A stretch of 64,000 nucleotides of DNA from Nitrososphaerota archaeon (GTDB lineage: Archaea > Thermoproteota > Nitrososphaeria > Nitrososphaerales > Gagatemarchaeaceae). The number at the start of each line of letters is the position of its first letter. Position 1 is the stretch's first letter. The stretch covers positions 1,147,374 through 1,211,373 of the forward strand of contig JAFLYY010000001.1 in the NCBI GenBank assembly GCA_029785825.1. The letters run 5' to 3'. The notes beneath the pieces were generated by a model that saw only the letters and a list, made by a program, of their open reading frames with translations, did not search any database and was not told the DNA's origin. Below, one piece after another: positions 4,624 through 15,392 of this stretch. The position numbers and the translations under genes were made by a program.

Positions 4624-4713
4624 CGGGCCCGGTGGGATTCGAACCCACGGTCTCTGAGCTTTCGCACTTCAGCTTCGGAGGCTGACGCCCTATCCGTGCT
4701 GGGCTACGGGCCC
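4624..4713 (-). tRNA. tRNA-Arg(CCG) with a 15-nt intron in the variable loop
   Basis: The minus strand folds as a cloverleaf: acceptor GGGCCCG/CGGGCCC, D-arm GCCC/GGGC, anticodon stem TCAGC/GCTGA with loop CTCCGAA (anticodon CCG at 4676-4678), and T-arm GTGGG-TTCGAAT-CCCAC. The discriminator is G at 4624 and CCA is not encoded. The body matches archaeal tRNA-Arg. The region between anticodon stem and T-stem is 20 nt instead of 5. Removing 15 nt (4652-4666) restores a normal 5-nt variable loop AGACC. A TTTATC box on the minus strand near 4739-4746 is a likely promoter. The 3' end served as the attachment site of the element at 1384-4641. Confidence 0.9.
4652..4666 (-). other. tRNA intron at noncanonical position 45/46 with compact bulge-helix-bulge
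   Basis: Reading the minus strand: exon CTGA, bulge AG|T, GC-GAAA-GC hairpin, TCAG, bulge AG|A, exon CC. CTGA pairs perfectly with TCAG to form the 4-bp central helix, both bulges are 3 nt, and cleavage after the second base of each bulge releases TGCGAAAGCTCAGAG. This is the substrate form of the archaeal splicing endonuclease, with a 2-bp inner helix closed by a GAAA tetraloop and no obvious outer helix (relaxed form). Splicing leaves A44 G45 joined to A46 C47 C48. Confidence 0.8.
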
Positions 4714-4789
4714 AATCGCCCGGCCGTAGGGGGCCCCGGATAAACACTGGCCCCCCGTTCTGCAATTCTCCCGCGCCCCGGACCTGCCG

Positions 4790-13055: not shown

Positions 13056-15392
13056 ATGAAATTTCTTTTCGTGACTGAGGAAAGTCTGTCCGCGGATCTT
13101 GCATGGCAGCTGAAGAAGGAAGGACACGAAGTGAAGATGTACTGCCACGGGCAGGGAGAGAAGGACGTAGGTCTGGGCTTCTTCGAAAAAGTCGACGAGT
13201 GGGACTCGCTGAAGGACTGGGCAGACGTGTTCGTATTCGATGACATAGGCTTCGGGAACAAAGCGGACCAGCTGCGCGCAGAGGGCAGGTTCGTAGTTGG
13301 CGGCACGCCGTACACGGACAAGCTTGAGCTCGACAGGGAGTTCGGCCAGTCGGAGTTGAACTCTGTCGGCGTTGACGTCCTGCCGAGCTGGAATTTCACG
13401 TCGTTCGATGACGCCATCGACTTCGTCAAGAAGAACCCGGACAGATACGTCCTGAAACCCAGCGGGAAGGCGCAGAGCGAAAAGGAACTCCTGTTCATCG
13501 GCCAGGAGCCGGACGGAAAGGACGTCCTGCAGGTGCTCGAGCACTACAAGGCGAACTGGTCCAAGAAGATCAAAGAGTTTCAGATGCAGAAGTTCGCCGA
13601 AGGTGTGGAGATAGCCGTGGGAGCCTTCTTTAACGGAAAGGAGTTCGTAATGCCTGTCTGCGTCAATTTTGAGCACAAACGTCTCTTTCCTGGCGAATTG
13701 GGGCCGAGCACGGGCGAGATGGGGACCGCCACGTTCTACACCAAGGACAGCCCCGTCTTCGAGCGGACACTGCAGAGAGCAAAGGAGAAGCTGGCCGCCA
13801 GCAAGTACGTCGGATACGTCGACATCAACTGCATCGCCAACTCGAAAGGCATCTGGCCCCTCGAATGGACCTGCTACGACGAGACGACGGAGATACTCAC
13901 GAAGTCCGGATGGAAGAAGTACTTCGAGGTCGAGATGGGAGACGAGACGCTGGCGATCGAGCCGAAGACGCGGGAGATGAGCTGGAAACGCATCACCGGG
14001 CTTCTGGTCAAAACATATCGGGGAGAGATGGTTCACTTGGGAGCCGCCGGCAAGGCACACTCCGGTCTCGACGCGCTGGTCACGCCAGACCACAACCTCT
14101 TGGTGAGCCGGTCCGGGAGGGTGGAGTTCGCGAAGGCCGGAGGGTTCCCAGCCTACGGCGCACGCGTGGTCAGAAGCGGGTCTTTCGCTGGGAAGCGCGT
14201 GAAGAGCATAGAGATCCCAGGCTACGTCGAACAGAATCAGGCGGGAAAGGACGGGAGGACGACGGAGACTCTCCATCAGCCTGTCCTAGTTCCGGCTGGG
14301 GCGTTCATGGGGCTGCTGGGGCTGTATCTGGCAGGAGGATCTGTGACGGGCGACCGTCGCATCGTCGACTTCTCTCAGAGCAAGGAGAGCCGCAGGCGAG
14401 ACGAGACAGAAATGATACTGAAGGCGACGGGACTGAGCTACACCTTCCAAGAGGACAGAGGCTTCCAGATCCCCTCGGCCCAGCTCGTCAGGTTCCTGGA
14501 CGAGTTGGGGCTCTCGGCTTTGAGCGCCGACGGAAGGTTCGTCCCAAGTCGGTTCAAGGACCTTGCACCTGAGCTGCTTAGCTCGCTTTGGCGCGGCTAT
14601 TCGCTCGGCGAGGGGGACAACCGCAGAGGCGCTCGGGGACAGAGCGTGGCCACCGCTTCGCGCAGGCTGGCCGACGACCTCCAAGAGATCATCATAAAGT
14701 GCGGGAGCATCGCCAACATCAGCGCAGGAGAACAGGAAGAGACAGTCTCCATCGGAGGGGGTCCCCGGAGCTGGGACCTGAACGGGCTCCCGGTCCGGAC
14801 TCGAAACATCGACTGCCCCCTGGACGATCGGACGGTCTCAAGGGAGGAGTACTCTGGCGTCGTATGGGACGTCGAAGTGGAGGACTGGCACACGATGCTA
14901 GTGAGAAGGAACGGCAGGCCCTACTTCGCCGGGAACTGTCGGTTCGGGTATCCCACGATAAGCATCCAGATGGAGGGGATTACAAGCGAGTGGGGCCAGT
15001 TTCTGTTCGACATAGCGCACGGGAACGACGCCCAGTTGAAAACGAAGAAGGGATACCAGGTGGGAGTCGTGGTGGCAATCCCGCCCTGGCCCTTCGAAGA
15101 CGAGAAGGCGTTCAAGAAGTACTCAGAGGGGGCGACGATACTCTTCAGGCGCCAGGCACATGACGGCGTGCACATAGGGGAGGTAAAGCAGGAGAACGGA
15201 GACTGGCGCATCGCCGGAAACTCCGGGTACGCGCTCGTGGTCACAGGGTCTGGGGCGACCATGGCAGACGCGATAGACAAAGCCTACCAGAACGTGAAGA
15301 ACGTCATGATCCCGAACATGTTCTACAGGAGCGACATCGGCCAGAGGTGGACCCACGACAGCGACATGCTCATCAGCTGGGGCTACATCTGA
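13056..15392 (+). CDS. PurD/GARS-like ATP-grasp protein with an intein
   Basis: The 778-aa precursor consists of a 423-aa extein split by a 355-aa intein (residues 273-627). The extein resembles phosphoribosylamine-glycine ligase: N-terminal nucleotide-binding-like half, ATP-grasp segment (RYVLKPSGKAQSEKEL), GPSTGEMGTATF (compare GPNTGGMG in PurD) and, after splicing, PLEWTCRFGYPTISIQ, matching the PurD motif LEFNxRFGDPE. Extein length equals that of PurD (~420-430), but the N-terminus and several motifs diverge. It may be a paralogue that ligates another amine and acid rather than the purine enzyme. No other purine genes are adjacent. Start ATG 13056. Confidence 0.85.
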   Translation: MKFLFVTEESLSADLAWQLKKEGHEVKMYCHGQGEKDVGLGFFEKVDEWDSLKDWADVFVFDDIGFGNKADQLRAEGRFVVGGTPYTDKLELDREFGQSELNSVGVDVLPSWNFTSFDDAIDFVKKNPDRYVLKPSGKAQSEKELLFIGQEPDGKDVLQVLEHYKANWSKKIKEFQMQKFAEGVEIAVGAFFNGKEFVMPVCVNFEHKRLFPGELGPSTGEMGTATFYTKDSPVFERTLQRAKEKLAASKYVGYVDINCIANSKGIWPLEWTCYDETTEILTKSGWKKYFEVEMGDETLAIEPKTREMSWKRITGLLVKTYRGEMVHLGAAGKAHSGLDALVTPDHNLLVSRSGRVEFAKAGGFPAYGARVVRSGSFAGKRVKSIEIPGYVEQNQAGKDGRTTETLHQPVLVPAGAFMGLLGLYLAGGSVTGDRRIVDFSQSKESRRRDETEMILKATGLSYTFQEDRGFQIPSAQLVRFLDELGLSALSADGRFVPSRFKDLAPELLSSLWRGYSLGEGDNRRGARGQSVATASRRLADDLQEIIIKCGSIANISAGEQEETVSIGGGPRSWDLNGLPVRTRNIDCPLDDRTVSREEYSGVVWDVEVEDWHTMLVRRNGRPYFAGNCRFGYPTISIQMEGITSEWGQFLFDIAHGNDAQLKTKKGYQVGVVVAIPPWPFEDEKAFKKYSEGATILFRRQAHDGVHIGEVKQENGDWRIAGNSGYALVVTGSGATMADAIDKAYQNVKNVMIPNMFYRSDIGQRWTHDSDMLISWGYI
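13872..14936 (+). other. Intein in the PurD-like protein, with a LAGLIDADG-like endonuclease domain
   Basis: 355 codons in frame. Block A starts with Cys1 (CYDETTEILTKSGWKKYFEV, residues 273 on). Block B has TPDH (T343, H346). The C-terminal splice region reads SGVVWDVEVEDWHTMLV and ends YFAGN before Cys+1 (codon 14937-14939), so the terminal Asn is kept and the penultimate residue is Gly instead of the usual His. The middle holds two DOD-like helices: LLGLYLAGG (420-428), in which the catalytic acid position is Gly, and LWRGYSLGEGD (511-521), in which Glu519 is kept. Splicing looks possible; DNA cleavage is probably lost or weakened. Confidence 0.9.

What the first reader, a model, noticed from the sequence alone, without database searches (positions are those of the whole stretch)
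4624..4713. tRNA-Arg(CCG) with a 15-nt intron at noncanonical position 45/46 and a minimal bulge-helix-bulge
The variable region is 20 nt long, which at first looks like a class II tRNA, but the anticodon and body are tRNA-Arg. Excision of TGCGAAAGCTCAGAG (4652-4666, minus strand) restores AGACC. The precursor folds with a perfect 4-bp central helix (CTGA/TCAG), two 3-nt bulges (AGT and AGA), and a 2-bp GAAA-closed hairpin. Such a compact intron away from 37/38 normally requires a broad-specificity splicing endonuclease, otherwise typical of Crenarchaeota/TACK and some other archaea.
Basis: partly seen in the sequence, partly recalled or inferred. Interest (0 to 1): 0.75.

Follow-up and report, generated by a model that had tools for sequence, protein, structure and literature searches.

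The report
Small spliced intron in archaeal tRNA
An arginine tRNA gene of an uncultivated archaeon carries a 15-letter intron in its variable loop that the cell's splicing enzyme almost certainly removes; this is a known kind of archaeal intron, and the new point is that this genus has very many of them and that close relatives show the same gene with and without it.

Summary
Window 4713-4624 (minus strand) is a single-copy tRNA-Arg(CCG) gene whose 20-nt variable region contains a 15-nt intron, TGCGAAAGCTCAGAG (4666-4652), at position 45/46 in a textbook bulge-helix-bulge. Three genomes of the same genus carry the gene without the insert, two of them with exactly the predicted product (GCTGA-AGACC). 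Twenty-five carry a 15-16-nt insert. Across 20 distinct inserts in tRNA-Arg CCG, TCG and GCG the central helix is paired in 97.5% of cells while the intron body varies in sequence and length (13-18 nt), with compensatory changes. The genome encodes a catalytic alpha EndA (Tyr/His/Lys, Lys-Pro-Lys loop signature), a beta EndA lacking the catalytic His, and RtcB ligase. The organism belongs to Nitrososphaerota (Thaumarchaeota), where (alpha-beta)2 EndA and 45/46 introns are already described. It is therefore a new member of a known kind. Beyond the finding: 20 of 22 class-I tRNA genes examined in this genome are enlarged, and tRNA-Arg(GCG) appears to hold three introns. Expression and splicing were not observed; the conclusion rests on sequence comparison.

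The parts
4624..4713 (-). tRNA-Arg(CCG) precursor gene, 90 nt, no encoded CCA
   Evidence: only one match to the Arg(CCG) pattern in the whole genome
4667..4713 (-). exon 1 (tRNA positions 1-45; anticodon CCG in loop CTCCGAA)
4652..4666 (-). 15-nt intron TGCGAAAGCTCAGAG at position 45/46
   Evidence: absent in G003, G005, G025
4624..4651 (-). exon 2 (positions 46-73)
4669..4672 (-). 5' strand CTGA of the central BHB helix (tRNA positions 40-43, shared with the anticodon stem)
4654..4657 (-). 3' strand TCAG of the central BHB helix (in the intron; repeats the TCAG of the 5' anticodon strand)
4666..4668 (-). 5' bulge AGT; predicted cut after AG
   Evidence: cut rule from established knowledge of EndA
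4651..4653 (-). 3' bulge AGA; predicted cut after AG
4658..4665 (-). intron hairpin GC-GAAA-GC (2 bp)
4740..4745 (-). GTTTAT, a possible archaeal TATA box ending 26 bases upstream of the gene
   Evidence: read from sequence; inference only

Best explanation
The insert is an archaeal bulge-helix-bulge tRNA intron at position 45/46. In the precursor, the intron's TCAG displaces the 5' strand of the anticodon stem and pairs with CTGA (positions 40-43), giving a 4-bp helix flanked by two 3-nt bulges. An (alpha-beta)2 EndA cuts each bulge after its second base, and RtcB joins exon 1 to exon 2, restoring a class-I tRNA-Arg(CCG) with variable region AGACC and letting the anticodon stem form. Shown here: gene, insert, helix with compensatory changes, insert-free relatives, and the genes for alpha, beta and ligase. 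Inferred: transcription, the strand exchange, the cuts and the joining.
For: Real tRNA. Insert-free relatives: G003 and G005 have GCTGA-AGACC exactly, G025 has AGATC; Arg(CCG) of several other genera and families also lacks a 45/46 insert (G034, G036, G061, G096). Twenty-five genomes of the genus carry a 15-16-nt insert, all but one with the TCAG strand intact. Covariation: exon CTGA with intron TCAG or TCGG in Arg(CCG/TCG), exon CTGG with intron CCAG in Arg(GCG); Val(TAC) and Val(CAC) of the same genome show GGCG/CGCC and GGCG/CGCT. EndA alpha and beta and RtcB are encoded.
Against: No transcript data. In the nearest-neighbour model the BHB form (-34.3 kcal/mol) is less stable than the cloverleaf with an intron hairpin (-37.5), because both compete for CTGA, so the enzyme or folding order must favour the BHB. 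There is at most one outer base pair. One relative (G012) has only 3 of 4 central pairs, and G020 Arg(TCG) likewise.
Confidence: 0.95

Rival explanations
1. The 20-nt variable region is kept in the mature molecule, a class-II-like tRNA-Arg with a long variable arm.
For: ARAGORN and Infernal score the unspliced gene well; the cloverleaf with a small hairpin in the variable region is the more stable of the two designed folds.
Against: Congeners and outgroups have a 5-nt variable region. Few inserts offer more than 2-3 bp of arm, the body varies from 13 to 18 nt, and what is best conserved is complementarity to the anticodon stem. Similar inserts occur in Arg and Val isoacceptors, each matching its own stem.
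Confidence: 0.02
2. The intron is real but is cut in another register (43/44 or 44/45), giving the same mature sequence.
For: Exon 1 and the intron both end in AG, so the three registers give one product.
Against: Only the 45/46 reading puts both cuts after the second base of 3-nt bulges beside a perfect 4-bp helix.
Confidence: 0.05
3. The gene is a decayed pseudogene with a chance insertion.
For: It departs from standard length.
Against: It is the only Arg(CCG) pattern match in a genome rated 100% complete, its exons form all four stems, and exons are nearly invariant across the genus while inserts vary.
Confidence: 0.01

Closest known systems
Archaeal noncanonical BHB tRNA introns at 45/46 (e.g. 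tRNA-Thr(GGU) of Caldiarchaeum subterraneum, PMC3293823)
   Same: Same position, BHB motif, tRNA host; variation in intron content between close relatives is described there too.
   Different: Here in tRNA-Arg(CCG) of another Nitrososphaerota lineage; the intron is only 15 nt with a 2-bp inner hairpin.
Thaumarchaeota noncanonical tRNA introns catalogued by tRNAscan-SE 2.0 (PMC8450103)
   Same: Same phylum; 107 noncanonical introns reported and a dedicated BHB model built.
   Different: That set came from 217 archaeal genomes; I could not test whether this genus was included.
Intron-rich tRNA genes of Thermoproteales (PMC4033280, PMC8450103)
   Same: Many tRNAs interrupted, several introns per gene, noncanonical positions.
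   Different: Different phylum; whether introns here moved between tRNAs was not tested.
Crenarchaeal (alpha-beta)2 EndA with crenarchaea-specific loop (Aeropyrum pernix 3p1z/3ajv; PMC12397907)
   Same: Alpha is closest to the Aeropyrum chain; catalytic Tyr, His, Lys and the K-P-[KR] loop signature kept.
   Different: Nitrososphaerota sequence; assembly and specificity unmeasured.

Membership tests
Archaeal BHB tRNA intron | 4-bp central helix between exon and intron flanked by two 3-nt bulges | tested here: met
   97.5% of cells paired in helix 1 over 20 sequences
Archaeal BHB tRNA intron | Removal restores a standard tRNA | tested here: met
   AGACC variable region restored; identical variable region in insert-free G003 and G005
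Archaeal BHB tRNA intron | Body free to vary while the helix is maintained by compensation | tested here: met
   11 cells with both-side changes against 3.9 in shuffles, 0/500 reach it
Archaeal BHB tRNA intron | Cut by EndA and joined by RtcB in the cell | not testable with these tools
   genes present; no RNA or enzyme data
Position 45/46 subclass | Cuts between nucleotides 45 and 46 | tested here: inconclusive
   favoured by BHB geometry, but three registers give the same product
(alpha-beta)2 EndA | A catalytic subunit plus a paralogue lacking a catalytic residue | tested here: met
   alpha Tyr/His/Lys kept; beta has Pro or Ala where the aligned His stands
(alpha-beta)2 EndA | Heterotetramer with broad specificity | not testable with these tools
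   inferred from sequence; loop signature K-P-[KR] in 30 of 30 homologues
Class II tRNA (long variable arm) | Conserved base-paired variable arm kept in relatives | tested here: not met

The most novel reading that the evidence does not exclude
This genus is a second hot spot of tRNA intron accumulation, comparable to Thermoproteales but in Nitrososphaerota, with recent gain and loss of 45/46 introns in sibling species, so that the same tRNA-Arg gene can be compared with and without its intron.
Probability: 0.5. Interest if true: 0.45.

Novelty: new member of a known kind. Interest (0 to 1): 0.28.

Why it matters
By itself it adds one more noncanonical archaeal tRNA intron. Its value is comparative: sibling species carry the same tRNA with or without an insert, and sister isoacceptors carry inserts of 13-18 nt, which offers a natural series for how tRNA introns are gained, lost and kept compatible with a splicing enzyme of presumed broad specificity. 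It also warns that tRNA finders can miss or mislabel genes in this lineage.

Tried and rejected
(1) Long variable arm: rejected, see rivals. (2) Split (trans-spliced) tRNA-Arg(GCG): the fetched stretch of the own genome lacked the 5' half, but the missing GGGCCCGTAGCC lies just upstream, so it is one gene of 166 nt read best as three introns; likewise G020 Arg(CCG) has a D-loop insert. (3) Origin of the intron by tandem duplication of the anticodon 3' half: a resemblance by eye, not shared by the other inserts; dropped. (4) Gain versus loss: on a single-gene RtcB tree presence/absence needs 4 changes, but one clade of carriers is not rejected (p-AU 0.22), so polarity within the genus stays open; outgroup genera lack the insert, which favours gain. 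(5) Synteny: the MFS neighbour is shared by 14 insert-carrying loci but not found beside the insert-free genes, so those are matched by exon sequence, not by place.

Full report
What is there. The minus strand at 4713-4624 is a tRNA-Arg(CCG) gene by two independent programs. Its stems are GGGCCCG/CGGGCCC, GCCC/GGGC, TCAGC/GCTGA and GTGGG/CCCAC; the variable region is AGTGCGAAAGCTCAGAGACC. The finding's coordinates, intron sequence, helix and bulges are all correct. A scorer of cloverleaf plus BHB, run over all single-intron readings, ranks the 15-nt intron 4666-4652 first.

Organism. The window lies in a 1.97-Mb genome in 8 contigs. Relatives found through the beta EndA gene are metagenome-assembled genomes titled Thaumarchaeota, Nitrososphaerota or Nitrososphaerales archaeon, the nearest (94% identity) being isolate WH2.bin77, titled only 'archaeon'.

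Comparative test. A pattern for tRNA-Arg(CCG) with an open variable region matched 27 of 31 genomes of the genus. Twenty-five have an insert of 15 or 16 nt. Two, G003 and G005, have CTCCGAAGCTGAAGACCGAGGG, i.e. exactly the spliced variable region predicted for the window's gene. A covariance-model search of the order found a third insert-free congener, G025 (AGATC), and insert-free Arg(CCG) in G036, G034, G061 and G096 from other genera or families. In families f4 and f9 the same tRNA appears instead to be interrupted near 29/30 (G039, G055, G099, read by eye).

Covariation. Twenty distinct inserts from Arg(CCG), Arg(TCG) and Arg(GCG) were aligned. The central helix is paired in 97.5% of cells: C-G and G-C never vary, U-A changes to U-G in two, A-U changes to G-C in both Arg(GCG) genes, whose anticodon stem ends in G. 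The inner two pairs vary on both sides. The whole structure reaches a covariation score of 0.225 against 0.089 +/- 0.017 in shuffles and at most 0.058 when slid. The alignment was not fitted to the structure, but the structure was derived from one of its sequences, and the sequences are related, so the shuffle control is not a probability. Val(TAC) and Val(CAC) of the same genome give GGCG/CGCC and GGCG/CGCT.

Machinery. The genome has two EndA genes. The alpha protein (185 aa) is closest among solved structures to Aeropyrum pernix EndA (3p1z, E 1.6e-42), and keeps the catalytic Tyr, His and Lys (the species of 3p1z is from my own knowledge). Its loop reads GIPKPKD; K-P-[KR] fits the signature reported for the crenarchaea-specific loop linked to broad specificity (PMC12397907), and it is present in 30 of 30 homologues of the order, including genomes without this intron. 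The beta protein (238 aa) has Pro or Ala in place of the aligned catalytic His. RtcB is present. All this is the equipment expected, not proof of activity.

Mechanism and its weak point. The intron's TCAG is a copy of the first four bases of the anticodon stem's 5' strand (TCAGC). The precursor can therefore pair CTGA with either. In isolation the cloverleaf is favoured by about 3 kcal/mol over the BHB (-37.5 against -34.3), so strand exchange must be driven by the enzyme, by modification or by folding order. This step is inferred.

Known or new. Position 45/46 is listed among noncanonical archaeal intron positions (PMC4090602), is described in Caldiarchaeum tRNA-Thr(GGU) (PMC3293823), and Thaumarchaeota are stated to have alpha2-beta2 enzymes (PMC4090602) and 107 noncanonical introns (PMC8450103). 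The finding is a new member of a known kind. What may deserve a second look is the load: of 22 class-I tRNA genes examined from the threshold search, 20 are 87 nt or longer, the exceptions being the two tRNA-Gln, and tRNA-Arg(GCG) is 166 nt. At one fixed cut-off the Arg model finds 4 tRNAs in this genome against 29 in G034 of the same family, which is consistent with a lineage-specific rise, though that count also depends on sequence divergence.

Noticed in passing
G000:C1:635829-635994 (L188): tRNA-Arg(GCG) of the own genome is 166 nt long, best read as three introns: D-arm (about 58 nt), 29/30 (18 nt) and 45/46 (13 nt, CTGG/CCAG helix). The D-arm register is uncertain.
   Followed up: partly
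own genome, loci L001-L030, L051, L170: 20 of 22 class-I tRNA genes examined are 87-113 nt long; Asn and Ile appear to have D-loop introns, Lys(CTT) a T-arm and an anticodon-loop intron.
   Followed up: partly
L004 and L008 (own genome): tRNA-Ala(TGC) and Ala(CGC) have 22-23-nt variable regions with a GGGA/TCCC helix, but the standard cut would leave 7 nt; register unexplained.
   Followed up: no
L174 (G000:C1:1530650-1530950): A 162-nt probable tRNA-Trp with large insertions, missed by the tRNA search at normal threshold.
   Followed up: no
G000:C2:150895-151549: A tight cluster of Leu and Ser tRNA genes on the 154-kb contig C2, additional to Leu genes on the main contig; possibly a mobile element.
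   Followed up: no
L009 and L032; similar spacing in G001, G002, G003, G005, G008, G013, G019, G022: tRNA-Arg(TCG) lies about 1.4-1.7 kb from the beta EndA gene in nine genomes.
   Followed up: partly
RtcB loci L139-L143 (G023, G026, G012, G002, G025): RtcB lies in an open frame of about 800-1100 aa with the match starting at residue 62-85, suggesting an in-frame insertion such as an intein.
   Followed up: no
window 13056-15392 (+): 778-aa frame resembling an ATP-grasp enzyme interrupted by an intein-like stretch (CYDETTEILTKSGW ... FAGNC).
   Followed up: no
L148 (G025:C22:218087-218196): tRNA-Arg(GCG) with a 45/46-like insert and an abnormal T arm; may be decayed or misassembled.
   Followed up: no
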